Shown piece after piece: positions 1 to 13,048 of a stretch of DNA of 64,000 nt. The translations under genes and the position numbers were made by a program. The stretch covers positions 62,001 to 126,000 of the forward strand of contig NZ_LNXV01000003.1 in assembly GCF_001467025.1 (NCBI RefSeq), written 5' to 3'. Each line of letters begins with the position of its first letter. Position 1 is the first letter of the stretch. This DNA comes from Legionella brunensis. Its GTDB lineage: Bacteria > Pseudomonadota > Gammaproteobacteria > Legionellales > Legionellaceae. The notes below the pieces were generated by a model that saw nothing but the letters and a program-made list of their open reading frames with translations, was not told where the DNA came from and made no database searches.

Positions 1-90
1 TTACAACAGCTAATGACTATCGTGAAGTTATATCAAGAGTTAGCAGGTGGGTACCGTGCTGGAGAGCTAATGAAAAAAGAAAATGCCTAG
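1..90 (+). CDS. Outer-membrane efflux factor (NodT/TolC type), C-terminal end only
   Basis: An open frame enters from the left edge and ends at a TAG. The visible 29 residues include a VKLYQELAGGY segment, which resembles the closing helix (LYxALGGGW-type) of outer-membrane channel subunits of RND and MFS efflux systems. That family forms a trimeric beta-barrel and helical tunnel taking substrates from a periplasmic adaptor. Only the last helix is visible, so the assignment rests on one short motif. The stop codon shares its final G with the left end of the following inverted repeat. Confidence 0.5.
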   Translation, partial: LQQLMTIVKLYQELAGGYRAGELMKKENA

Positions 91-230
91 GGCCTGTTAC
101 AATTCTACTATCTTGGTCGAAAAGCTTTGATTTTCTGTGCTTCGTTGCTCACATACTTCATGTATGCTGCGCTACGATGCTCAAAAATCAAGGCTTTTTA
201 GCTTAAGTTAGCAAATTGTAAAACAGACCC
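90..230. repeat. Inverted-repeat element (MITE-like) of about 140 bp
   Basis: The two ends are near-perfect inverted copies: GGGCCTGTTACAATT at the left and AATTGTAAAACAGACCC at the right. Inside them a second pair of arms follows (GAAAAGCTTTGATTTT against AAAATCAAGGCTTTTT). The centre holds GCTTCGTTGCTCACATAC and GTATGCTGCGCTACGATGC, also roughly symmetric about CATGTATG. Nested dyads with no coding capacity fit a non-autonomous miniature element or a large intergenic hairpin. No second copy was noticed in this window, so dispersal cannot be judged here. Confidence 0.6.
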
Positions 231-246
231 TCGAGTCGGTCTACCC

Positions 247-714
247 TTAGAGATGGTCGAGTGGTAATACGGTTGTGTCACAAATATTACTTAAGATAAA
301 ACTGGAATGTACGCTACTTACACCGTTGATGCTGGTTAATTTACCCAATAAAAATGACTGATAAGCCTTCAAGTCCGGTACGATCACTTTTAACAAATAG
401 TCCGCCGATTGTCCTGTAATCAAATAGCACTGAATTACTTCAGGTAGTAGACGCATGGTTTCTTCAAATTCACTCATAATTGCTGGTTGGTGGCTATTTA
501 ACCCAACCAGAACGATGACCGTAAGTTCTAAACCAATCTTCTCGGGATTAAGTAGGACAATCTGTTTGTTGATATAGCCATTTTCTTCTAATAGCTTGAC
601 GCGTCGCAGGCATGGTGAAGGGGAGAGGGCAACCAAATCGGCTAACTCTTGATTGCTAATCTTGCAATTGGTTTGCAGGATTTCGAGTATTTTTTTATCG
701 GTACGGTCTATCAT
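247..714 (-). CDS. Lrp/AsnC family transcriptional regulator
   Basis: A 155-aa protein with the usual Lrp/AsnC layout. Residues 1-60 form a helix-turn-helix, opening MIDRTDKKILEIL and containing ELADLVALSPSPCLRRVKLL. Residues 70-145 match the ligand-binding RAM domain, which responds to amino acids. Such proteins form dimers to hexadecamers and bind AT-rich operators. The gene is divergent from the leucine biosynthesis operon, and two AT-rich inverted motifs lie between them, so local control of that operon or of itself is a reasonable inference. Whether it is Lrp itself or another paralogue such as BkdR cannot be decided from sequence alone. Confidence 0.9.
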   Translation of the reverse strand: MIDRTDKKILEILQTNCKISNQELADLVALSPSPCLRRVKLLEENGYINKQIVLLNPEKIGLELTVIVLVGLNSHQPAIMSEFEETMRLLPEVIQCYLITGQSADYLLKVIVPDLKAYQSFLLGKLTSINGVSSVHSSFILSNICDTTVLPLDHL

Positions 715-750
715 TGTCTCGCCATGAAATTTAATAATGCATGATGTTTT

Positions 751-816
751 AAAATATTAGAATATTTAACTAAAAAATACTATTTAATTGGCATTAATAT
801 TTAAAATATTCTAATT
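751..816. promoter_or_regulatory. Candidate Lrp-type operators upstream of the leucine operon
   Basis: Two related AT-rich motifs lie in opposite orientation about 50 bp apart: AAAATATTAGAATATTT (751-767) and TTAAAATATTCTAATTA (801-817). They share the core AATATTCTAAT when one is read on the other strand. Lrp/AsnC proteins often bind several phased, degenerate AT-rich sites, and a gene of that family is transcribed away from this region. The role is inferred; part of the match may reflect the high AT content. Confidence 0.4.
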
Positions 817-910
817 AATGACAATGTTAGCAATATAATTCCAAAGCAAGTTGGTTAAAATATTTAAAACAATCAGATATTTTTTTAATCACTTGCTTTA
901 GGAAAATAAA

Positions 911-2950
911 ATGAGCGTCAACACCAACGAAAAAATTATTATATTAGACACCACCTTAAGGGATGGTGAACAAGCGCCAGGCGCTACGATGATGGTGAGT
1001 CAGAAAATTGAAATTGCCGAAGCGCTTGATTCAATGGGTGTGGATATCATTGAAGCGGGTTTCGCCGCAGCTTCTTCAGGTGATTTTGCATGTATTAAGC
1101 AAATTTCCAGGGTAGTAAAAAATGCCAGGGTCAGTAGCCTGGCGAGAGCTAAAATTCCAGATATTGAAGCAGCTGGTATGGCGGTTAAATCCGCCGTAAA
1201 TCCGAGGATACATACGTTTATTTCAACCTCAGATTTGCATTTAAAATATCAATTTAGAATGACTCAGGAGGATGCTTTGGCAGCAGTAGAGTCTTCCGTC
1301 AAGAGTGCGCGAAACTTTTGTGACGATGTTGAATGGTCGGCGATGGATGCTACGCGCTCAAATATAGATTTTTTGGCGAAGGCTGTTGAGATGGCTATCA
1401 ATGCTGGTGCAAATACAATCAATATTCCTGATACGGTTGGTTATACTACACCTGATGAATACAGTGATTTAATCAAAGCCTTAAAAAATAAGGTAGCCAA
1501 TATTGATAAAGTTATTTTATCTGTGCATTGTCATAACGATCTAGGATTAGCTGTAGCAAATTCGATGGCAGCAATTCGTGCTGGTGCTAGACAAATCGAA
1601 TGTACGATAAATGGTATTGGTGAACGTGCTGGCAATGCAGCATTAGAGGAAATAGTTATGACTATCAAAACCAGACAGGATAAATTTCCTTTTACCATGA
1701 ATATAAATCCAACACATATTGCAACAGTTTCACAAATGGTCTCAAAAGCTAGTGGATTTACTGTGCAAAAAAATAAAGCCATCGTCGGTGCGAATGCCTT
1801 TGCTCACGAATCAGGTATTCATCAGGATGGTATGCTAAAGTGCCGCGAGACTTATGAAATTATGACGCCTGAATCCGTGGGGTTTTCTCAATCAAAATTA
1901 AGCATGGGTAAACACTCTGGACGTGCTGCATTCCGGAATAAATTATCTGCATTGCAAATGGATGTTAGAGAAGATAATTTTGATGAGTTATTTAATAAAT
2001 TCAAAAAATTAGGCGACTCCCAGAAAGAAGTGACGGATGCAGAAATCATTGCTTTAGCGGAAGGAAAAAAGACGACTATCCAGCAAGAAAAAGGTGCGAT
2101 TTGGATAGATGGACAATTTGTGCCCTGGAGCGATGCTCATGTTCCTATTTTGACCCATGCATTACATTATGCCAGTGCTGTTTTTGAGGGCGCGCGAGCG
2201 TATAATGGTAAGGTATTTAAGCTCCATGAGCACAATGAACGTTTGCATGCTTCAGCAAAGACGCTGGGCTTTACAATTCCCTATAGCATTGCCGAATTAA
2301 ATTCTGTTACCGAAGAGTTACTCTGCAGAAATCATTTGCAGGATGCTTATATTCGTCCGATTGCCTGGTGTGGGGAGGAAACAATGAGTGTTGCCTCCCA
2401 TTCATGTACGATTCATGTGGCTATTGCAGCTTGGTCATGGAAATCTTATTTTTCTGATGAGCGCTCTATGCAGACAGGGTTAAAGTTGATGTGGGCTGAT
2501 TGGATTCGTCCTTCCCCCTCAACAGCGCCTGTGACTGCAAAAGCCGCTGGGTTATATATGATTGGTTCACTGAGCAAGAATAAAGCGGAGCAGGCTGGAT
2601 TTCATGATGCATTGATGTTGGATTATCGCGGTTTTGTGGCAGAATGTACCGGCGCTAATTTTTTTATGGTTAAAAATGGTGTTATTCATACGCCGATAGC
2701 TGATTGCTTTTTAAATGGTATAACGAGGCAGACAGTTATTGCTATTGCAAAAAGTCATCACATTCCCATCATTGAGCGTCATATTTATCCCCATGAAGTG
2801 ACAGAGGCAGACGAAGTGTTCATCACCGGAAGTGCTGTTGAAATTGCGCCAATTTCTCAAATTGGCGAACACTCGTTCAAAGTCGGGGAAATTACACAGC
2901 GCATCACCCAAGCTTATAGCAATTTGGTAAGAGGGCATGACTATGATTAG
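911..2950 (+). CDS. leuA-ilvE: Fused 2-isopropylmalate synthase / branched-chain aminotransferase
   Basis: One 679-aa frame joins two enzymes of leucine synthesis. Residues 1 to about 390 are the LeuA catalytic TIM barrel and linker: TLRDGEQ (15-21), the metal-binding VHCHNDLG with H206 and H208, and GERAGNAALEE near 237-247. This part condenses acetyl-CoA with 2-oxoisovalerate. The LeuA C-terminal dimer domain, which binds leucine for feedback inhibition, is absent. From about residue 396 the sequence is a full class IV PLP aminotransferase like IlvE, with THALHYASAVFEGARAY, the Schiff-base lysine K544 in VTAKAAG, and DEVFITGSAVEIAPI. This part makes leucine, isoleucine or valine from the 2-oxo acids. 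AGGAAA precedes the ATG. No in-frame ATG lies near the junction, which supports a real fusion. First gene of the leu operon. Confidence 0.93.
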   Translation: MSVNTNEKIIILDTTLRDGEQAPGATMMVSQKIEIAEALDSMGVDIIEAGFAAASSGDFACIKQISRVVKNARVSSLARAKIPDIEAAGMAVKSAVNPRIHTFISTSDLHLKYQFRMTQEDALAAVESSVKSARNFCDDVEWSAMDATRSNIDFLAKAVEMAINAGANTINIPDTVGYTTPDEYSDLIKALKNKVANIDKVILSVHCHNDLGLAVANSMAAIRAGARQIECTINGIGERAGNAALEEIVMTIKTRQDKFPFTMNINPTHIATVSQMVSKASGFTVQKNKAIVGANAFAHESGIHQDGMLKCRETYEIMTPESVGFSQSKLSMGKHSGRAAFRNKLSALQMDVREDNFDELFNKFKKLGDSQKEVTDAEIIALAEGKKTTIQQEKGAIWIDGQFVPWSDAHVPILTHALHYASAVFEGARAYNGKVFKLHEHNERLHASAKTLGFTIPYSIAELNSVTEELLCRNHLQDAYIRPIAWCGEETMSVASHSCTIHVAIAAWSWKSYFSDERSMQTGLKLMWADWIRPSPSTAPVTAKAAGLYMIGSLSKNKAEQAGFHDALMLDYRGFVAECTGANFFMVKNGVIHTPIADCFLNGITRQTVIAIAKSHHIPIIERHIYPHEVTEADEVFITGSAVEIAPISQIGEHSFKVGEITQRITQAYSNLVRGHDYD

Positions 2951-3000
2951 GTGTAATAGACGAAAGTTTTTGACGAATGCAATGTAAATCCGGAGAGATA

Positions 3001-4410
3001 ATGAAAACCTTATATGACAAAATTTGGGAACAACATCAGGTTTGTAATAAGCCGGATGGCACTGCAATTATTTACATTGATAAACATTTAATCCATGAAG
3101 TTACCAGTCCGCAAGCTTTTGAAGGATTGATGCTTTCCGGTAGAAAAATTAGACGCCCTGAGACTATTCTGGCAGTTAGTGATCACAATGTCCCAACATT
3201 AAATCGTCATGCCGGCATTGTTGATCCGGAGTCGCGATTACAAGTGAATATGCTGCAAGAAAATTGCCATCGATATGGAATTCGCTATATCGATCTTTTA
3301 GATAAGCAGCAAGGAATCGTACATATCATTGGGCCAGAGCAAGGATTTACTTTACCGGGGACAACATTGGTTTGTGGTGATAGTCATACGTCTACCCATG
3401 GTGCTTTTGGTGCACTTGCTTTTGGTATCGGTACAAGCGAAGTAGAGCATGTCTTTGCTACGCAAACCTTGATCTTAAAAAAATCGAAAAATATGCGTGT
3501 ATGTATCAATGGGAGTTTGCCTTTTGGGGTTACAGCAAAGGACATCATCCTCGCAATTATTGCAAAGATTGGTACTGCAGGAGGCACAGGACATGTTATC
3601 GAATTCACGGGTTCATTAATATACTCACTATCCATGGAAGCAAGAATGACGCTTTGTAATATGGCAATTGAGGCTGGAGCCCGTGCGGGACTTATAGCGC
3701 CGGATGAGGTTACTTTTACCTATTTACGTGGCCGTCTCTATGCGCCTAAGGATGAAATGTGGGATAAAGCGGTTGATTACTGGCGTACTTTACAAAGCGA
3801 TGCCGGTGCGAAATATGATAAAGAAATAATCTTGGAAGCCGACAAAATAGTGCCCTTTGTGACTTGGGGAACTAGTCCTGAAACTGCATTACCTATTGAT
3901 GCGATGGTGCCTGATCCCATCAACGAAGTCGACCCAGTTAAACAAGATTCTATGCGACGTGCTCTGGACTATATGGGCTTAGAGCCGGGTATGCCTTTAC
4001 AAGCAATAAAAATTGACAAGGTTTTTATTGGATCTTGTACGAATGCCCGCATTGAGGATTTACGAGATGCAGCCCGGGTTATTAAAGGAAGAAAAGTTTC
4101 GCCCGGTGTTTATGCTATGGTTGTCCCTGGTTCGGGGTTAGTGAAAGAACAAGCTGAGCATGAAGGGTTAGACAGCATTTTTATTGCTAGTGGCTTTGAC
4201 TGGCGTGAACCAGGTTGCTCCATGTGTCTTGCCATGAATGCCGACCGATTAAAACCTGGTGAGCGGTGTGCATCAACTTCAAATCGAAATTTTGAAGGGC
4301 GACAAGGCCGGGGTGGTCGCACCCATTTGATGAGCCCAGCAATGGCTGCAGCAGCAGCAATTACCGGAAAATTAACGGATGTCCGCACCTTAATTACGGC
4401 GGGGGATTGA
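3001..4410 (+). CDS. leuC: 3-isopropylmalate dehydratase large subunit
   Basis: With LeuD this subunit isomerises 2-isopropylmalate to 3-isopropylmalate in the cytoplasm, using a 4Fe-4S cluster. The 469-aa protein has the aconitase-family cluster cysteines C346 (in [12 protein letters not shown]), C406 and C409 (in GCSMCLAMN), at nearly the same numbers as in E. coli LeuC. The ATG preceded by GGAGAG was chosen because the protein then begins [12 protein letters not shown], as in the family; an upstream in-frame start would add eight residues. It lies 50 bp after the fused leuA-ilvE gene and just before leuD. Confidence 0.96.
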
Positions 4411-4412
4411 TT

Positions 4413-5009
4413 ATGCGAGCATTTAAAACAATAACGGGTGTTATGGCTGCATTGCCCATTGCAAATATCGACACGGATATGATTATTCCCAAACAATATC
4501 TGAAAACAATAAAAAGAACAGGATTAGGGAACTATCTATTTGCTGAATTGCGTTATGACGAAGACAATAAACCAAATCCTAATTTTATTTTAAATCAGCC
4601 TGATTTCCAAAAAGCAAAGATTTTATTGACAGAAGAAAATTTTGGTTGTGGTTCAAGCCGTGAACATGCTGTGTGGTCTTTAATTGATTTTGGAATTAGG
4701 GTCATTATTGCGCCAAGTTTTGCCGATATATTTTATAGCAATTGTTTTAAGAATGGTTTGTTACCGATTGTTATACCAAAATCCATGATTCAACAGCTGG
4801 CCACACTAAATGCTCCAGTGACAGTGGATTTGGAATCACAAACAATTAGGGCAGATACGCTAGAAATTCATTTTTCTATTGATGCTTACAGACGTGATAG
4901 CTTACTCAAAGGACTGGATGAAATTGGTGAAACCTTAATTTATGAAAAGGAAATAGCTGCTTTCGAAAAGAAACAAAAAATCGCACAACCTTGGCTTTTT
5001 CTGGAGTAG
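4413..5009 (+). CDS. leuD: 3-isopropylmalate dehydratase small subunit
   Basis: Swivelling small subunit that pairs with LeuC. The 198-aa protein shows NIDTDMIIPKQYL near the start and ENFGCGSSREHAVW in the middle, both typical of LeuD, and ends at the usual family length. The ATG two bases after the leuC stop is preferred, with GGGGGA as ribosome-binding site; a TTG six bases upstream, overlapping the leuC stop, is an alternative. The near-overlap suggests translational coupling with leuC. Confidence 0.95.
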   Translation: MRAFKTITGVMAALPIANIDTDMIIPKQYLKTIKRTGLGNYLFAELRYDEDNKPNPNFILNQPDFQKAKILLTEENFGCGSSREHAVWSLIDFGIRVIIAPSFADIFYSNCFKNGLLPIVIPKSMIQQLATLNAPVTVDLESQTIRADTLEIHFSIDAYRRDSLLKGLDEIGETLIYEKEIAAFEKKQKIAQPWLFLE

Positions 5010-5015
5010 CTAATT

Positions 5016-6134
5016 ATGCATAAAACAATTCTTGTTCTTCCTGGTGACGGTATCGGACCTGAGGTGATTGCTGAAGCGGTTAAGGTGATACAGTGGTTTA
5101 ACCAACATTCATCCCATCGTTTTGATTTGATGCATGGGTTAATTGGTGGTGCCTCGATTGACCATAGCGGATTACCTTTGGATAATGAAACGCTTATGAT
5201 TGCCAAACAAGTCGATAGCATTTTATTAGGTGCAGTCGGTGGGTCACAATGGGATCACATTGGAAATGAGTATAAACCTGAGAAGGGACTACTTAAAATT
5301 CGCAAAGAATTAAATCTCTTTGCCAATTTAAGGCCGGCTACTTTTTTTCAAGCGTTATCAGCATCTTCGCCATTGAAGACAGAGCATATTACAGGTCTTG
5401 ATTTCATCATTGTTCGTGAGTTGACAGGAGATGTTTATTTTGGCGAACCTCGGGGAATGGCTATTGTAGAGGGGCAAGATATTGCCTTTAATACCATGTG
5501 CTATACAAAATCTGAAATTGAGCGGATAGCTAGGGTCGCATTTACACTCGCCAAACAACGAAATAATCAGGTTTGTTCCGTTGATAAAGCGAACGTCTTG
5601 GAAACTTCTATGCTGTGGCGCACTACTGTTCAAACAATACGCGATAAGGAGTATCCTGAAGTAAGCCTCTCTCATATGTATGTGGATAATGCGGCCATGC
5701 AGTTAATCCGTAACCCCAAACAATTTGATGTGATGCTAACAGCAAATTTATTTGGTGATATTTTGTCGGATGAGGCTGCTATGCTAACCGGATCACTGGG
5801 TATGCTGCCATCGGCATCTTTTGGGGAACATCATTCGCTGTACGAACCTATTCACGGTAGTGCACCGGATATTGCAGGAACAAACCGTGCCAACCCACTG
5901 GCGATGATATTAAGTGTCGCGATGATGTTTCAGTACTCTTTTAAACTGGAAAAAGAAGCACAGATGATTCAAAGGGCTATCACCGAGGTTTTGGATAGTG
6001 GATTACGAACCAAAGACATTTTGACTCCTGGAGATATTTTATTATCAACCACAGAGATGGGAAATAAGATCATTGAACAACTTAATAAAATTAAAGCAAA
6101 AAGCATAGAAAAACAATTCTGTTACATGATGTAA
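5016..6134 (+). CDS. leuB: 3-isopropylmalate dehydrogenase
   Basis: NAD-dependent oxidative decarboxylase that turns 3-isopropylmalate into 2-oxoisocaproate, which the aminotransferase half of the first gene can convert to leucine. The 372-aa protein begins with LPGDGIGPEV, carries VRELTGDVYFGEPRG, and has the metal-site region FGDILSDEAAML and the NAD-binding EPIHGSAPDIAGTNRANP. It starts six bases after leuD, so the four genes form one operon covering the leucine branch. The order A(E)-C-D-B differs from the E. coli order A-B-C-D. Confidence 0.96.
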   Translation: MHKTILVLPGDGIGPEVIAEAVKVIQWFNQHSSHRFDLMHGLIGGASIDHSGLPLDNETLMIAKQVDSILLGAVGGSQWDHIGNEYKPEKGLLKIRKELNLFANLRPATFFQALSASSPLKTEHITGLDFIIVRELTGDVYFGEPRGMAIVEGQDIAFNTMCYTKSEIERIARVAFTLAKQRNNQVCSVDKANVLETSMLWRTTVQTIRDKEYPEVSLSHMYVDNAAMQLIRNPKQFDVMLTANLFGDILSDEAAMLTGSLGMLPSASFGEHHSLYEPIHGSAPDIAGTNRANPLAMILSVAMMFQYSFKLEKEAQMIQRAITEVLDSGLRTKDILTPGDILLSTTEMGNKIIEQLNKIKAKSIEKQFCYMM

Positions 6135-6189
6135 TCAATGCGCCTCTTAGCAAAATAGAGTAGATTAAAGGCATTTATAAGGAGATAGT

Positions 6190-6741
6190 ATGGTTAAAAA
6201 AATAGGGGTACTTGTCGGCAGTCTGCGTAAAGAGTCATGGAATCGGAAACTGGCCTTGGCATTGATAAAGCTCGCCCCATCTTCGCTTGATTTGAAAATG
6301 ATAGAGATAGGACAGTTACCGCTTTATAACCAAGACCCTGATGACGAAAATAGACCACTTAAAGAGTGGGTTAATTTTCGTGAAAGCATGAAATCCCTTG
6401 ATGGTTTTTTATTTGTTACGCCAGAGTACAATCGTTCTATCCCCGCACCACTTAAAAATGCGATCGATGTGGGCTCAAGACCTTATGGAAAAAGTATCTG
6501 GGGTGGCAAACCAGGTGCAGTCATTAGTGCATCTCCTGGTGCAATTGGGGGCTTTGGTGCAAACCAACATTTGCGTCAAACCTTCGTATTTTTAAATGTG
6601 TTCTGCATGCAACAACCTGAAGCCTATATTGCGAGTGTCAACAAACTTTTTGATGATGAAAATAATATCCCTAATGATAGCACACGTGAATTTTTACAAG
6701 GCTACATGGAAAGTTTTGCAAAATGGGTGAATCAATTTTGA
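6190..6741 (+). CDS. NADPH-dependent FMN reductase (YieF/ChrR-like flavoprotein)
   Basis: A 183-aa flavodoxin-fold protein. GSLRKESWNRKLA near the N-terminus forms the FMN phosphate loop, and TPEYNRSIPAPLKNAIDVGSR is the signature of the NADPH-dependent FMN reductase / quinone reductase family, followed by GGKPGAVISASPGAIGG. Family members reduce quinones, chromate or azo dyes by two electrons and protect against redox stress. AAGGAGATAGT precedes the ATG. It lies 55 bp after leuB on the same strand and may be read through from the leu operon. Its 3' end overlaps the convergent tatB by about 10 bp. Substrate unknown. Confidence 0.9.
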   Translation: MVKKIGVLVGSLRKESWNRKLALALIKLAPSSLDLKMIEIGQLPLYNQDPDDENRPLKEWVNFRESMKSLDGFLFVTPEYNRSIPAPLKNAIDVGSRPYGKSIWGGKPGAVISASPGAIGGFGANQHLRQTFVFLNVFCMQQPEAYIASVNKLFDDENNIPNDSTREFLQGYMESFAKWVNQF

Positions 6742-7043
6742 TGCCAGGATTGGCTGTGATTAGCTTGTTTTTCAGCATTGGTGTTTTCATCAGGCGTTGA
6801 AGAGATAGGGAGTTTGCTATCTTCATTTGCTTGATAAAAAACATCAACCTTTTCTGCTTTGCGTGTATTTTCTCGCAGCTGTTGTTCGTTTAGTTGTGCC
6901 TGCCAAAATGCCATGGCTTGTTGCTTAAAGTAATTAAGATGTCGGAATAACTTACCCAAATGTTCGGCTAACATTGGTAATTTATTCGGGCCAAAAACCA
7001 CAATAGCAACAAGCAATGTTAATAAAAGTTCGCCGCCACTCAT
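6732..7043 (-). CDS. tatB: Sec-independent translocase protein TatB
   Basis: Membrane-anchored receptor component of the twin-arginine translocase. The 103-aa protein has one N-terminal membrane helix (GGELLLTLLVAIVVFGPNKLP, with the family FGPNKLP hinge), an amphipathic helix (AEHLGKLFRHLNYFKQQ) and a polar, probably disordered tail. It is shorter than E. coli TatB (171 aa), which fits the variable tail. Start and tatA stop overlap in ATGA. No tatC follows: the next gene is convergent. Confidence 0.88.
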   Translation of the reverse strand: MSGGELLLTLLVAIVVFGPNKLPMLAEHLGKLFRHLNYFKQQAMAFWQAQLNEQQLRENTRKAEKVDVFYQANEDSKLPISSTPDENTNAEKQANHSQSWHQN

Positions 7044-7201
7044 GATTTTTTATCATCATCTTCGTTCATTGCGCGACGAAAATTCTTAATGGCAGTGCCT
7101 AGATCGGAGCCAATATTTTTTAATTTATTCGTACCAAATAAAGCAATAATTATTAAAAATATCAATAATAAAGATAACGGACTGATTCCACTTAATCCCA
7201 T
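7040..7201 (-). CDS. tatA: Sec-independent translocase protein TatA
   Basis: A 53-aa protein read on the minus strand, starting MGLSGISPLSLLLI and containing FGTNKLKNIGSDLGTAIKNF. This is the TatA pattern: one membrane helix, the FG hinge and the amphipathic helix with GxDLGxAIKxF. TatA oligomers form the pore for folded twin-arginine substrates. Its ribosome-binding site (AACAGGAGT) lies within the last codons of ubiB and its start is one base from the ubiB stop, so it is translationally coupled to the ubiquinone genes. The ubiE-ubiJ-ubiB-tatA-tatB order is also found in E. coli. Confidence 0.95.
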   Translation of the reverse strand: MGLSGISPLSLLLIFLIIIALFGTNKLKNIGSDLGTAIKNFRRAMNEDDDKKS

Positions 7202-7202
7202 G

Positions 7203-8843
7203 TTAACTCCTGTTGATACGGTTAAGAAAAGTTATAACGCCTGCAACTATAGCAGCGGATAAAGCCATGGCTGCTAATTTATCCTGATTTAAAATATCGA
7301 ACATACTTACGGTTACCATTGTTGCAAAAACACCGATACCCAAGCCTTTGTACCAACTTGATTTGGCTGGATTGTCTATTTGTTCACAATCGCGTGTTAG
7401 CGCACGAATTTTTTGTTCTTTGGTGAGTTGCAATACTTCATTTAAAAGACGAGGCATATGGGGTAGTTGTTCAGAAAGGAAAGGCAAATTTTCGCGCAAT
7501 TGCTTGAGAAATGCACGGGGGCCCATTTGTTCTTTAAGCCATTTCTCTAAAAAGGGTTTAGCGGTTGCCCACAAATCAAGTTCTGGGTAAAGTTGACGCC
7601 CAAGACCCTCAATGGCAAGAAGCGTTTTTTGTAATAAAACCAATTGTGGCTGTACCTCCATTTGAAAGCGTCTTGCCACCTGGAAAAGTCGTAATACAAC
7701 TTGAGCAAAAGAAATATCTTTTAGTGGTTTTTCAAAGATAGGCTCGCAAACGGTACGAATAGCACTTTCAAATTCTTCTACGCGTGTGTCTCTTGCTACC
7801 CATCCTGACTCAACGTGGAGAGCAGCAACACGTCGATAATCACGATTAAAAAAAGCATATAAGTTTTCGGCTAAATAACGTTTGTCACTATCGCTTAGGG
7901 TGCCAATGATACCAAAATCAATGCAAATATATTGAGGATCATGGGGGTGCAAAAGAGAGACAAAAATATTACCAGGGTGCATATCCGCATGGAAGAAACA
8001 ATCTCTAAAAACTTGTGTAAAAAAGATTTCAACACCGCGCTCAGCAAGTTTTTTAATGTCAACCCCATGTTCTTTTAATCTTGCAATATCCGAGACGGGG
8101 ATCCCATGGATTCGCTCCATAACCATGATGTTTTCGCGGGTGTAATCCCAAAACACCTCTGGAATATAAAGTAATGGGGATTCCTGAAAGTTTCTGCGCA
8201 ATTGTGCAGCATTGGCAGCTTCTCGCTGTAAATCAAGTTCATCAAGCAGGTTATGCTCGAATTCTTGGACAATTTCTTTCGGCCTAAGTCGTTTGCTTTC
8301 AGACCAATAGCGATCAGCAAGATTCGCTATGGTATACATAATACTAATGTCTTTTTCGATAATCTTGCGCATATTGGGGCGCAAGATTTTAACTACAACG
8401 TCTTCACCTGTTTTTAAGGTTGCAGCATGAACTTGGGCCATGGAAGCCGAAGCAAGTGGTATAGGATCGAATTCAGCAAAAACTTCGAAAGCAGATCGGC
8501 CAAATGCGAGCTCAAAAATGGTTAGAGCTTTTTCACTGGCAAAGGGGGGCACATCATCTTGAAGTTTGCATAACTCAAGCGCTATATCTGGAGGTAAGAT
8601 ATCAGGACGAGTGGAGAGTGCTTGGCCGAATTTAATAAAAATGGGGCCTAATTCTTCCAGTGTTTTTCGCAGAGCTTCTCCCCGAGTTAATTTTTCTTTA
8701 CGAAACCAATTCCAGGGATTTAAGTAAACTATGAAGCGAAAAGGAGAAAAAAGTCTTATTGAAACAACGACTTGATCAAGACCATTCTTGGCCAAAATAG
8801 TATTGATATGAAGGAGTCGGATTAGTTGTTTAATCGATTTCAT
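7203..8843 (-). CDS. ubiB: Ubiquinone biosynthesis regulatory kinase-like protein UbiB
   Basis: Member of the ABC1/ADCK/UbiB atypical kinase family needed for aerobic ubiquinone synthesis; an ATPase role in the COQ metabolon is the known view. The 546-aa length equals E. coli UbiB. Visible family features are FIKFGQALSTRPDILP (the KxGQ region), the lysine in VVVKILRP, HADMHPGNIFV and the DFG motif in CIDFGIIG. Two hydrophobic helices close the C-terminus. The start MKSIKQLIRLL was preferred over an upstream in-frame ATG because it matches the family; it overlaps the end of ubiJ by 14 bp. Confidence 0.95.
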   Translation of the reverse strand: MKSIKQLIRLLHINTILAKNGLDQVVVSIRLFSPFRFIVYLNPWNWFRKEKLTRGEALRKTLEELGPIFIKFGQALSTRPDILPPDIALELCKLQDDVPPFASEKALTIFELAFGRSAFEVFAEFDPIPLASASMAQVHAATLKTGEDVVVKILRPNMRKIIEKDISIMYTIANLADRYWSESKRLRPKEIVQEFEHNLLDELDLQREAANAAQLRRNFQESPLLYIPEVFWDYTRENIMVMERIHGIPVSDIARLKEHGVDIKKLAERGVEIFFTQVFRDCFFHADMHPGNIFVSLLHPHDPQYICIDFGIIGTLSDSDKRYLAENLYAFFNRDYRRVAALHVESGWVARDTRVEEFESAIRTVCEPIFEKPLKDISFAQVVLRLFQVARRFQMEVQPQLVLLQKTLLAIEGLGRQLYPELDLWATAKPFLEKWLKEQMGPRAFLKQLRENLPFLSEQLPHMPRLLNEVLQLTKEQKIRALTRDCEQIDNPAKSSWYKGLGIGVFATMVTVSMFDILNQDKLAAMALSAAIVAGVITFLNRINRS

Positions 8844-9447
8844 GCTGGCTCGAGAGTTGGTTAACGTGAGCTTGCAAACGTTCAACATCAAGCACTAGTT
8901 TATCAAGGTCGTGAAAAAAATCCTCTATTTCTTCCCGGGGCGGGAAGATGCGCATTTCTTCTTGGAGATAATCACTTAGATTATGACGCATGGATTCACT
9001 CAAGTGCTTTTTAAAAGCAAGTCCCTGGCGGAATAAAGAACCGAATTGATGAGCAACTACATCGCCAGTGAAATGAGCGAGATGACCTTCCCAATCAATA
9101 TCCAGCTCATCAAATAATTTTTTAACTTCTTGTCCTAATTCAACATCGCCTGAAAGTCTAATTTTATCATTGAATAAAGAACGAGCTTTAGACGCAGGCA
9201 GAAAGCTTAATCGAATTAAACCAAGGGGGCTGCTATGAATGATAGTGTCTGGTTGTCCATCATAATCAGCAAGTAGTTTTAATTGTTCTTGTTCAAAGAG
9301 AATAAAAAAATTCACCCCAAGAGGTGCAATAATGACTTCAAGTGCTTTACCATGCAAGGCAGTAATTTTAGCAGGCATAGACTCATCCAGGGCTAGCGCA
9401 TGATTAATAGCTTTTTGCAGTGCTTTTAATGAATATTTTTTGATCAT
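8830..9447 (-). CDS. ubiJ: Ubiquinone biosynthesis accessory factor UbiJ (SCP2 domain)
   Basis: A 205-aa cytoplasmic protein with an N-terminal SCP2-like lipid-binding domain (roughly residues 15-115, including the DTIIHSSPLGLIRL and SGDVELGQEVKKLFDEL segments) and a C-terminal helical, coiled-coil-like tail that ends in DLDKLVLDVERLQAHVNQL. UbiJ holds ubiquinone intermediates in a soluble complex with other Ubi proteins. Its place between ubiE and ubiB, with six bases to ubiE and overlap with ubiB, confirms the assignment. Confidence 0.93.
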   Translation of the reverse strand: MIKKYSLKALQKAINHALALDESMPAKITALHGKALEVIIAPLGVNFFILFEQEQLKLLADYDGQPDTIIHSSPLGLIRLSFLPASKARSLFNDKIRLSGDVELGQEVKKLFDELDIDWEGHLAHFTGDVVAHQFGSLFRQGLAFKKHLSESMRHNLSDYLQEEMRIFPPREEIEDFFHDLDKLVLDVERLQAHVNQLSSQHEID

Positions 9448-9453
9448 AATACC

Positions 9454-10206
9454 TCAATATTTGTAAGCAATGTGCAAGGCAACAATACCACCACTTAAAT
9501 TATAATAATGACAATCTTCAAATCCTGCTTTCTCAATCATAGTTTTTAATCCCTCTTGATTGGGATGCATACGAATAGATTCAGCCAAATATTGATAACT
9601 CTCCCCATCTTGGGCAAAAAACTCACCGAGCTTAGGCAACACCTTGAAAGAATACAAATCATAAATGGGTTTTAATCCGGGCAGCGTGGGCGTTGAGAAT
9701 TCCAGCACCATAAGTTTTCCGCCAGGCTTACAGACACGATACATAGAACGCAATGCTTCATCTTTATCAGTGACATTACGTAAGCCAAAACCAATTGTAA
9801 TGCAATGAAAGCTATTATTGGCAAATGGTAGACTTTGCGCGTTGGCTTGTACGAAATCGATATTGGTGAAGAGTCCTTCATCAAGAAGACGATCACGTCC
9901 TACTGCAAGCATGGCCTCATTAATATCAGCCAGAATGACTTTACCTGACTCACCTACTTTCCTACTAAGTAGCCGTGTAAGGTCACCACTCCCACCGGCT
10001 AAGTCAAGCACAGAATGCCCTGGACGAACTTGACTTATCTCTATTGTGAAGCGCTTCCATAGATGATGTACACCTATAGACATGATGTTATTCATTAGAT
10101 CGTAATTTTTAGCAACCGATTTGAAAACGGCGCCAACTTTTTTCTCTTTTTCATCCCAGGCAACTGATTCAAAGCCAAAATGGGTCACTTTTTCATTATC
10201 GGTCAT
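9454..10206 (-). CDS. ubiE: Ubiquinone/menaquinone C-methyltransferase UbiE
   Basis: SAM-dependent C-methyltransferase of ubiquinone (and menaquinone) synthesis. The 250-aa protein contains the SAM-binding loop [26 protein letters not shown], and the UbiE signatures [18 protein letters not shown] and [17 protein letters not shown]. It is the first gene of the minus-strand group ubiE-ubiJ-ubiB-tatA-tatB. The region upstream, facing the MFS gene, should hold the promoter, but no convincing sigma-70 site was recognised. Confidence 0.96.
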
Positions 10207-12316: not shown

Positions 12317-13048
12317 ATGCTAAGAGCTTTTGGATTCACGTCATATTTTTTTAATTCGCCCCCTACTCCTCCCCAGCAAAAATTAGATTCTTCTGTTACT
12401 TTTGATTATCGCAATACAGAGCATATTGATATCATTAAAAATCGCATCGCGCGTTTTAAACAAGCACAGGCTGCAATTTATAGTTTTGATAATAAAATTA
12501 TTAGTGGCCTGGCTGTGGGAACGGTTTGTTGGGCTGGCGCTTCGATTCCTCTTCCATTTACACCAACGATCACTATTTCCTTAGCGAGTTTTTCTTATGC
12601 GTCGTATCAATTGGGTCGCCGCCCTGATTCTGGCTTGCTTGAGCCTTATCGTGAAGCGCTGACGGATCTAATTGAAGTCTACAAATGGTCCATGCATGGC
12701 AAAACAAACACTTGGTATAAATTAGGTGTGCCCCAAATCCAAGATTTGATTTTAACTTTAGGTCCTTGGGTGCCGACAGAAACTATTGCTATCTGGGAGG
12801 AAAAGGATTTAGAGCCTGGTAGATTTTCTTCCCGAGGATTAGAACCGACCAAAGAATTTAAAGACAAGTTAAATGAATTGGCTGCTGGAGCGCATACTAA
12901 AAGCATTTGGTTTTCTGTGTACGGCGAAAATGGCACCGATGATTTGATTAATGCCGCGAGTGCCTATTTAAAACAAGTTGCCTTAGGAGCTGCAGAGAAA
13001 TACGCGCCTACACCCGTGACAACGCTCTTTAAATTACATAACAATTAA
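12317..13048 (+). CDS. Orphan protein with one hydrophobic region
   Basis: Not recognised. The preferred start gives 243 aa, preceded by GGAGTTGAGA; an in-frame ATG twelve bases upstream is possible. After a proline-rich start (FFNSPPTPPQQ) and a charged helix near residues 30-60, a stretch of about 40 hydrophobic residues (IISGLAVGTVCWAGA onwards) could form a membrane hairpin. The rest is soluble-looking, with a tryptophan-rich middle and a helical end. It is monocistronic with its own likely promoter. It has the character of a lineage-specific Legionella protein; secretion by Dot/Icm is possible but unsupported by any specific motif here. Confidence 0.75.
   Translation: MLRAFGFTSYFFNSPPTPPQQKLDSSVTFDYRNTEHIDIIKNRIARFKQAQAAIYSFDNKIISGLAVGTVCWAGASIPLPFTPTITISLASFSYASYQLGRRPDSGLLEPYREALTDLIEVYKWSMHGKTNTWYKLGVPQIQDLILTLGPWVPTETIAIWEEKDLEPGRFSSRGLEPTKEFKDKLNELAAGAHTKSIWFSVYGENGTDDLINAASAYLKQVALGAAEKYAPTPVTTLFKLHNN

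What the first reader, a model, noticed from the sequence alone, without database searches (positions are those of the whole stretch)
911..2950. 2-isopropylmalate synthase fused to branched-chain aminotransferase, without the leucine-sensing domain
One uninterrupted frame joins LeuA catalytic and linker domains to a complete IlvE. The first and last steps of leucine synthesis are thus in one chain, and the C-terminal domain that gives leucine feedback inhibition has been replaced. All known catalytic motifs of both halves are present. Predicted effects are loss of allosteric leucine control, possible channelling or co-regulation, and a shift of control to transcription (an Lrp gene is adjacent).
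Basis: partly seen in the sequence, partly recalled or inferred. Interest (0 to 1): 0.75.

Follow-up and report, generated by a model that had tools for sequence, protein, structure and literature searches.

The report
Fused LeuA-IlvE leucine enzyme in Legionella
Some Legionella relatives carry one protein that joins the first enzyme of leucine synthesis to the enzyme that swaps amino groups on leucine and valine, and because these bacteria seem to lack the usual way to make the starting compound, the protein most likely helps turn scavenged valine into leucine.

Summary
Window 911-2950 (+) is one 679-residue frame: LeuA catalytic and linker domains, a short variable linker, a complete class IV branched-chain aminotransferase, and no LeuA_dimer domain. 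leuC, leuD and leuB follow; an Lrp/AsnC-family gene is divergent. The fusion is uninterrupted in 8 of 143 Legionellaceae genomes (9 copies), with pieces in others, and the trees support one origin. The A6 run at the junction is not conserved.

None of 143 Legionellaceae has ilvC or ilvD over cut-off, and the window genome's only ilvD-like gene is Edd, so 2-ketoisovalerate probably cannot come from pyruvate. I propose a valine-to-leucine converter: the IlvE half deaminates imported valine to the LeuA substrate and later aminates ketoisocaproate. A relative (G114) has the same gene set unfused, with a distant LeuA. In six related loci a leucine-rich leader and terminator precede the fusion, which suggests control moved from enzyme to transcription; the window has no such attenuator. 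A lone acetolactate synthase gene in the genome is a point against. Enzyme activity, valine use and channelling are untested; the structure job never finished.

The parts
911..2950 (+). fused leuA::ilvE gene, 679 aa, 74.4 kDa
911..2059 (+). LeuA half, residues 1-383: HMGL-like catalytic domain (8-277) and HCS_D2 linker domain (291-372), ends at the conserved D-x-(D/E)-I-(I/M)-A-L stretch
2060..2089 (+). junction linker, residues 384-393, variable in sequence and length between species; holds an A6 run that is not conserved
2090..2947 (+). IlvE half, residues 394-679: class IV branched-chain aminotransferase with Lys544 in VTAKAAG
247..714 (-). divergent Lrp/AsnC-family regulator, 155 aa, below the cut-off of the Lrp equivalog; relatives at 61-89% identity next to the leu genes in L009, L010, L011, L012 and L138
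715..910 (.). intergenic region with a 12-bp perfect inverted repeat (756-767 and 804-815), reached by 28 of 1000 shuffles: weak candidate regulator site; no leucine leader, no terminator
2977..4410 (+). leuC (TIGR00170, 782.9 bits, cut-off 560.25); the start may be 3001
4407..5009 (+). leuD (TIGR00171, 230.8 bits, cut-off 116.25)
5016..6134 (+). leuB (TIGR00169, 496.1 bits, cut-off 353.2)

Best explanation
A bifunctional 2-isopropylmalate synthase / branched-chain aminotransferase heads a leucine operon that starts from valine. The IlvE half passes the amino group of imported valine to 2-oxoglutarate, giving 2-ketoisovalerate. The LeuA half, which has no leucine-sensing domain, condenses it with acetyl-CoA. 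LeuCD and LeuB turn the product into 2-ketoisocaproate. The IlvE half then aminates that with glutamate, giving leucine, so the amino group is conserved overall. Leucine control has moved from the enzyme to transcription: a ribosome-mediated attenuator in some relatives, probably the divergent Lrp/AsnC-family protein in the window. Shown by sequence: the fusion, the operon, the missing domain, no ilvC or ilvD found, leader-terminator arrangements in relatives. Inferred: enzyme activities, valine as substrate, leucine as product, regulation. No evidence either way: channelling between the halves.
For: ilvC over cut-off in 0 of 143 Legionellaceae against 14 of 14 control genomes. ilvD over cut-off in 0 of 143; 68 have matches below cut-off, and the one in the window genome is Edd (TIGR01196, 985 bits, cut-off 708). 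leuC over cut-off in 11 of 143: 9 of these show the fusion in one frame, G135 shows only IlvE from residue 464 on, 128 bases from a contig end, and G114 has separate ilvE-leuA-leuC-leuD-leuB beside a related Lrp/AsnC gene. Control: of 276 class genomes 224 have LeuA_dimer over cut-off; comparing that list by hand, 217 of the 224 have an ilvC match at E below 1e-50 and 7 do not. In G000 the other two Aminotran_4 proteins look like PabC and D-amino-acid transaminase, both below cut-off. A leucine-rich leader plus terminator precedes the fusion in 6 loci, with 0 of 500 shuffles giving both in any of them; leader alone 0, 0, 7, 10, 0 and 21 of 500. An MFS transporter gene precedes leuC inside the cluster in L009 and L018. 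L. pneumophila is described as auxotrophic for Leu, Ile and Val, with PhtJ as a valine transporter (passages of PMC4158876 and PMC3920079).
Against: The window genome has an acetolactate synthase large subunit over cut-off (722 bits against 538; 1 of the 11 leuC-positive genomes); none of 4 neighbouring ORFs scanned is an ilv gene, but it is an unexplained piece of the usual route. The window's own upstream region has no attenuator and the regulator-site candidate is weak. M145 replaces a residue that is Glu in most LeuA compared. The title of a paper on a LeuA without its regulatory domain says that removal disrupts substrate binding (reference 82 of PMC8468904, title only). Four fused genomes (G121, G129, G057, G084), and G135 in a copy with stops, also carry a separate IlvE, so the fused half is not always the only one. 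7 of 224 class genomes with LeuA_dimer also lack ilvC. No biochemical data.
Confidence: 0.6

Rival explanations
1. Ordinary domain fusion. Two leucine enzymes from one donor were joined by chance and kept because it does no harm; the joining itself has no special role, and ketoisovalerate comes from valine by any aminotransferase.
For: Linker variable in length and sequence and relaxed at the protein level; separate IlvE also present in several fused genomes; stand-alone copies of the LeuA half survive in G000 and, in part, G088.
Against: The fusion is seen in 9 of 11 leuC-positive family genomes, and unfused leuA-ilvE neighbours are found in G114 and on a Caballeronia plasmid, so the pairing recurs.
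Confidence: 0.25
2. Carbon route, not leucine supply. Valine is lengthened to ketoisocaproate to feed iso-odd branched fatty acids, or to be degraded through the leucine pathway, which ends at HMG-CoA lyase.
For: An HMG-CoA lyase (PRK05692, 430.8 bits, cut-off 246) is in the genome; Legionella membranes are rich in branched fatty acids (recalled).
Against: Leucine-rich leaders with terminators before the fusion in six relatives point to leucine as the sensed product; the aminotransferase half is then needed only once.
Confidence: 0.12
3. The LeuA half is impaired or changed (no regulatory domain, M145) and the protein acts mainly as an aminotransferase or on another keto acid.
For: M145 instead of Glu in all 10 fused and 3 stand-alone family copies aligned; no regulatory domain; a paper title says that removing that domain disrupts substrate binding (reference list only).
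Against: 14 of 34 non-gamma LeuA from long frames have the same Met; LeuA half under strong purifying selection; intact leuC, leuD and leuB follow.
Confidence: 0.08

Closest known systems
Canonical LeuA (2-isopropylmalate synthase) plus separate IlvE, as in E. coli
   Same: Both catalytic families and the leuC, leuD, leuB partners
   Different: One chain; no LeuA_dimer domain; no ilvC over cut-off in the family
Plant methionine chain elongation: BCAT4, methylthioalkylmalate synthase, IPMI, IPMDH, BCAT3 (passages of PMC8468904)
   Same: A branched-chain aminotransferase deaminates an amino acid, a LeuA-like enzyme that lost the regulatory domain lengthens it, isomerase and dehydrogenase follow, an aminotransferase restores the amino group
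   Different: Plant enzymes act on methionine and make glucosinolate precursors, with BCAT4 in another compartment; here valine to leucine is proposed, with LeuA and IlvE in one fused protein and one operon
E. coli ilvC or ilvD mutants that make leucine from supplied valine (recalled, no call)
   Same: Ketoisovalerate from valine by reverse transamination
   Different: There a mutant by-pass with normal, leucine-inhibited LeuA; here a fixed natural arrangement
LeuA models of Sulfolobales and Leptospira, 371 and 374 positions (NCBIfam NF041069, NF042434)
   Same: Model length leaves no room for a C-terminal regulatory domain
   Different: Those models score below cut-off here (378.9 of 600; 233 of 500) and hold no IlvE
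leu operon attenuation of enteric bacteria (passages of PMC6123439)
   Same: Leucine-rich leader peptide followed by a terminator before leuA, in six relatives
   Different: No match to an Rfam family at gathering score; stands before a fused leuA::ilvE; absent in the window

Membership tests
2-isopropylmalate synthase (LeuA) | HMGL-like TIM-barrel catalytic domain plus HCS_D2 linker domain | tested here: met
   PF00682 309.5 bits, PF22617 97.2 bits
2-isopropylmalate synthase (LeuA) | C-terminal leucine-binding LeuA_dimer domain (PF08502) | tested here: not met
   No match in the protein or in G000
2-isopropylmalate synthase (LeuA) | Full-length curated model over cut-off | tested here: inconclusive
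   NF002086 596.4 bits over 532; NF002087 606.8 under 729; TIGR00973 573 under 598.7
2-isopropylmalate synthase (LeuA) | Active-site motifs: D13, R17-D18, H206, H208 (roles recalled), S-x-E-D | tested here: inconclusive
   DTTLRDGEQ at 13 and SVHCHNDLG at 204 present; S-x-E-D reads SAMD (M145), shared by 14 of 34 non-gamma LeuA and 0 of 10 gamma
2-isopropylmalate synthase (LeuA) | Leucine feedback inhibition | not testable with these tools
   Needs an assay
Branched-chain aminotransferase (IlvE, class IV) | Aminotran_4 domain and curated BCAT models over cut-off | tested here: met
   PF01063 167.7 bits; PRK07544 430.7 over 396, PRK06606 323.1 over 279, TIGR01122 291.6 over 245.55
Branched-chain aminotransferase (IlvE, class IV) | PLP lysine motif | tested here: met
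   VTAKAAG, Lys544 (role recalled)
leu operon | leuC, leuD, leuB adjacent in the same direction | tested here: met
   All three over cut-off at 2977-6134
Lrp (leucine-responsive regulator) equivalog | Score over the Lrp equivalog cut-off | tested here: not met
   PRK11169 116.6 bits under 233; Lrp/AsnC family domains are met
Ribosome-mediated leucine attenuator | Leucine-rich leader peptide plus terminator upstream | tested here: not met
   Not found in the window, L009, L010, L012; present in L011, L013, L067, L068, L069, L063
De novo valine/leucine pathway | ilvC and ilvD in the genome | tested here: not met
   ilvC no match in G000; ilvD-like gene is Edd; a lone acetolactate synthase is present

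The most novel reading that the evidence does not exclude
A natural valine-to-leucine converter: bacteria of a family without ilvC and ilvD hold leucine synthesis alone, as a module whose first enzyme, of alphaproteobacterial type in both halves, is fused to the aminotransferase that both makes its substrate from host-derived valine and finishes the product, with leucine control handed from the enzyme to an attenuator or Lrp-type regulator. It would be a bacterial counterpart of the plant amino acid chain-elongation cycle.
Probability: 0.5. Interest if true: 0.72.

Novelty: new variant of a known kind. Interest (0 to 1): 0.58.

Why it matters
It shows how a host-dependent lineage may patch one amino acid need without the shared upstream pathway, and gives a testable meaning to an enzyme fusion. 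It also warns that calling a genome leucine-auxotrophic because ilvC and ilvD are missing, or leucine-prototrophic because leuABCD is present, can both be wrong: the prediction here is leucine independence only if valine is supplied. A LeuA without its leucine sensor, paired with a branched-chain aminotransferase, was seen here in the fusion clade and next to each other on a Caballeronia plasmid; in G114 the pair stands side by side with a LeuA that keeps part of the sensor domain. The pairing may mark amino acid lengthening in general.

Tried and rejected
Programmed frameshifting at the junction: the window has A-AAA-AAG in frame at the A6 run, the kind of slippery site known from dnaX (recalled). 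Rejected because relatives lack it and keep the frame; the -1 frame runs 38 residues to a stop.

Separate IlvE made from an internal start: the window has an in-frame GTG at residue 374, near the end of the LeuA half, and no ATG, GTG or TTG between it and the first IlvE motif; L009 has an ATG in the linker, and 7 of the 10 other copies with an IlvE half have ATG in the usual W-M-D-G motif. Not supported, not excluded.

Loss of catalysis through M145: considered, then weakened because LeuA of other lineages carry it.

Known RNA leader: no Rfam family at gathering score in window 1-10000 or in 8 related loci.

Regulator site: a 12-bp inverted repeat is reached by 28 of 1000 shuffles and by eye is not in the relatives' intergenic sequences printed; left as weak.

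The MFS transporter as a valine carrier: the family has 9 to 20 matches in each of 11 genomes; specificity cannot be read from sequence. Resemblance to Pht transporters is by eye and recall.

Fusions elsewhere: in 398 phylum genomes no full-length match was listed outside G000, but only the best matches were printed and at most two candidates per genome scored. In 72,556 plasmid records, 1 of 760 with a match covers 80% or more of the query, and it is two adjacent genes.

Prior publication: searches of an open-licence library listed no paper whose title or abstract start describes this fusion (one search listed none at all). Most subscription papers are not held, so this is not proof of absence. 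Papers were seen as passages only (PMC4158876, PMC3920079, PMC8468904, PMC11057210, PMC7311316, PMC6123439); the rest as search listings.

Full report
What is there. Window 911-2950 (+) is one open frame of 679 codons. Pfam finds the LeuA catalytic barrel (8-277), the LeuA/homocitrate-synthase linker domain (291-372) and a class IV aminotransferase (424-651), and no LeuA_dimer regulatory domain. NCBIfam LeuA models align from the N-terminus to about 394 (TIGR00973 to 435) and branched-chain aminotransferase models to 390-676, several of the latter over cut-off. leuC, leuD and leuB follow directly, all over cut-off. Divergently, 247-714 encodes an Lrp/AsnC-family protein that scores well below the Lrp equivalog cut-off.

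It is real. The window lies in contig C3 of a 3.75 Mb genome rated 99.98% complete. A scan of genome contigs returned 19 related loci; the named ones with the fusion are Legionella drozanskii LLAP-1, Legionella massiliensis LegA, a Legionellaceae MAG (two copies) and a Legionella sp. MAG. Among 143 genomes of the family, 8 hold an uninterrupted fusion (G000, G121, G047 twice, G129, G057, G084, G123, G120). One G047 match is flagged with a TGA, which is the natural stop at its end (open frame of 684 codons). G066 has LeuA plus 118 residues of IlvE, then a stop or break. G138 has LeuA 280-390 and IlvE in one frame, with the rest of LeuA in two other frames. G135, the Tatlockia MAG contig L018, holds only IlvE from residue 464 on; the 128 bases before it, up to the contig end, do not match the fusion. 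Across the junction the aligned copies keep frame. The LeuA half ends at a conserved D-x-(D/E)-I-(I/M)-A-L stretch, then a variable linker, then the first IlvE motif IW-x-x-G. The window's A6 run is not shared. In the three least diverged pairs dN is under a tenth of dS in both halves (L011/L012: 0.021 against 0.25 and 0.024 against 0.37; L067/L068: 0.009 against 0.20 and 0.009 against 0.13; L013/L069: 0.076 against 0.96 and 0.049 against 1.09), while the linker is much less constrained in most pairs.

Origin. In a tree of 59 LeuA rows, the 10 fused LeuA halves plus two stand-alone LeuA (the second copy in G000 and a remnant in G088) form one clade (98/94), apart from the 10 gammaproteobacterial LeuA (100/100) and among the non-gamma ones; the two stand-alone copies fall inside the fused clade. 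So those two probably lost their IlvE half. A third stand-alone LeuA (L060 in G056, 387 aa) falls outside on a long branch of unsure place. In a tree of 33 IlvE rows, 11 rows labelled fused (one of them L018, where the fusion itself is not seen) form one clade (100/100) that joins alphaproteobacterial IlvE (96/89) and not the 15 stand-alone Legionellaceae IlvE (100/100); the alphaproteobacterial rows were those found by pattern, and the tool warned of long branches. One fusion event, with both halves of alphaproteobacterial type, is the simplest reading; the donor is not named.

The missing upstream pathway. ilvC has no match over cut-off in any of 143 Legionellaceae; 52 have weak matches of at most 23.8 bits against a cut-off of 226. 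It is found in 14 of 14 controls. ilvD has no match over cut-off in 143; 68 have matches below it. Only the one in G000 was examined: it is 6-phosphogluconate dehydratase. leuC is over cut-off in 11 of 143, and none of these has ilvC over cut-off. As a yardstick, in 276 class genomes ilvC is over cut-off in 223 and LeuA_dimer in 224. Comparing the two lists by hand, 217 of the 224 have an ilvC match at E below 1e-50; the seven exceptions are G542, G611, G637, G643, G691, G731 and G785. Hence leucine genes without ilvC are rare in the class sample and the rule in this family. Against this stands a lone acetolactate synthase large subunit in G000, over cut-off, the only one among the 11 leuC-positive genomes; four neighbouring ORFs scanned are not ilv genes. 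G121 and G135 have similar genes just under the cut-off.

Consequence. If the operon makes leucine, 2-ketoisovalerate must come from elsewhere, and valine transamination is the known route (established knowledge). In G000 the fused half is the only branched-chain-type protein among three Aminotran_4 proteins found: the other two resemble PabC and D-amino-acid transaminase, both under cut-off. In the printed part of the listing, G047, G120, G123 and G138 also show no separate IlvE of the 34-40% kind, while G121, G129, G057 and G084 do, and G135 has one with stops. The fused enzyme could thus act both before and after LeuA. Independent support: G114 carries a divergent Lrp/AsnC gene, then ilvE, leuA, leuC, leuD, leuB as separate genes, with a LeuA only 33% identical to the fused one, below LeuA model cut-offs, and with a partial LeuA_dimer. 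A Caballeronia plasmid has a LeuA frame of 394 aa, too short for the regulatory domain, followed 79 bp later by a branched-chain aminotransferase of another family (TIGR01123, 409 bits, cut-off 250). In L. drozanskii and the Tatlockia MAG an MFS transporter gene lies between the fusion (or its surviving part) and leuC; relatives elsewhere in G057 and G084 are 71-72% identical. L. pneumophila is reported auxotrophic for leucine, isoleucine and valine and uses PhtJ for valine (passages).

Control. Six loci (L011, L013, L067, L068, L069, L063) have, just before the fusion, a short open frame ending in a leucine cluster, then a G+C hairpin and T run. In each, 0 of 500 dinucleotide shuffles gave both features; a leucine cluster as dense was alone reached by 0, 0, 7, 10, 0 and 21 of 500. 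Their alignment keeps the terminator in all six. L067, L068 and L063 are close relatives, as are L013 and L069, so this is fewer than six independent cases. The window, L009, L010 and L012 have neither, but have the divergent Lrp/AsnC gene; L011 has both. I read this as leucine control moved from enzyme to transcription, by two alternative means. For the window itself only the neighbouring regulator gene supports it.

What it works like. The closest working model is the plant methionine chain-elongation cycle, where BCAT4 deaminates methionine, a LeuA relative without regulatory domain lengthens it, and BCAT3 restores the amino group (passages). By membership the LeuA half lacks one defining feature of regulated LeuA, and its S-x-E-D motif reads S-A-M-D, a variant also present in 14 of 34 non-gamma LeuA.

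What is not known. Activities, valine use, leucine as the end point and any channelling are inferred or untested. The structure prediction did not finish. Bench tests of this gene were referred.

Noticed in passing
L058:10083-11288 (G000:C3:54083-55288): Second LeuA, 401 aa, also without regulatory domain and without IlvE, 73% identical to the fused half, about 8 kb upstream, next to patatin-like genes (by eye); no leu genes recognised beside it. Its role is unexplained.
   Followed up: partly
L011, L013, L063, L067, L068, L069 upstream of the fusion: Leucine-rich leader peptides with terminators; several loci (L013, L063, L067, L068, and in part L069) seem to have a second leucine-rich short frame (..LLLSLSRL..) further upstream, as if two attenuators in tandem.
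   Followed up: partly
L138:6062-12236 (G114): Unfused ilvE-leuA-leuC-leuD-leuB operon with divergent Lrp/AsnC gene; an integrase-core transposase ORF follows at 12706.
   Followed up: yes
L163:2861-8356 (Caballeronia sp. NK8 plasmid pNK81): LeuA without regulatory domain next to a branched-chain aminotransferase of another family, beside an alanine-racemase-like gene (by eye) and one with a below-cut-off match to caprolactamase subunit beta; possibly an amino acid lengthening step in another pathway.
   Followed up: partly
window 1343-1345 (residue 145 of the fusion): Met in place of the Glu of the S-x-E-D motif, in all 10 fused copies aligned and in 14 of 34 non-gamma LeuA; a LeuA lineage with a changed motif residue that merits its own study.
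   Followed up: partly
L139:1594-2757 (G321, 0.9 Mb genome): Stand-alone LeuA of 387 aa, by length also without the regulatory domain, in a reduced genome outside the class.
   Followed up: no
L133, L134, L135 (G127, G006, G007): LeuA of about 570 aa with LeuA_dimer in family genomes that have no leuC over cut-off; those of G127 and G006 match the PRK03739/TIGR00970 type (G007 not scanned).
   Followed up: no
L160:7504-9234 (G000:C34): Isolated acetolactate synthase large subunit gene; a nearby protein matches a Dot/Icm effector model below its cut-off.
   Followed up: partly
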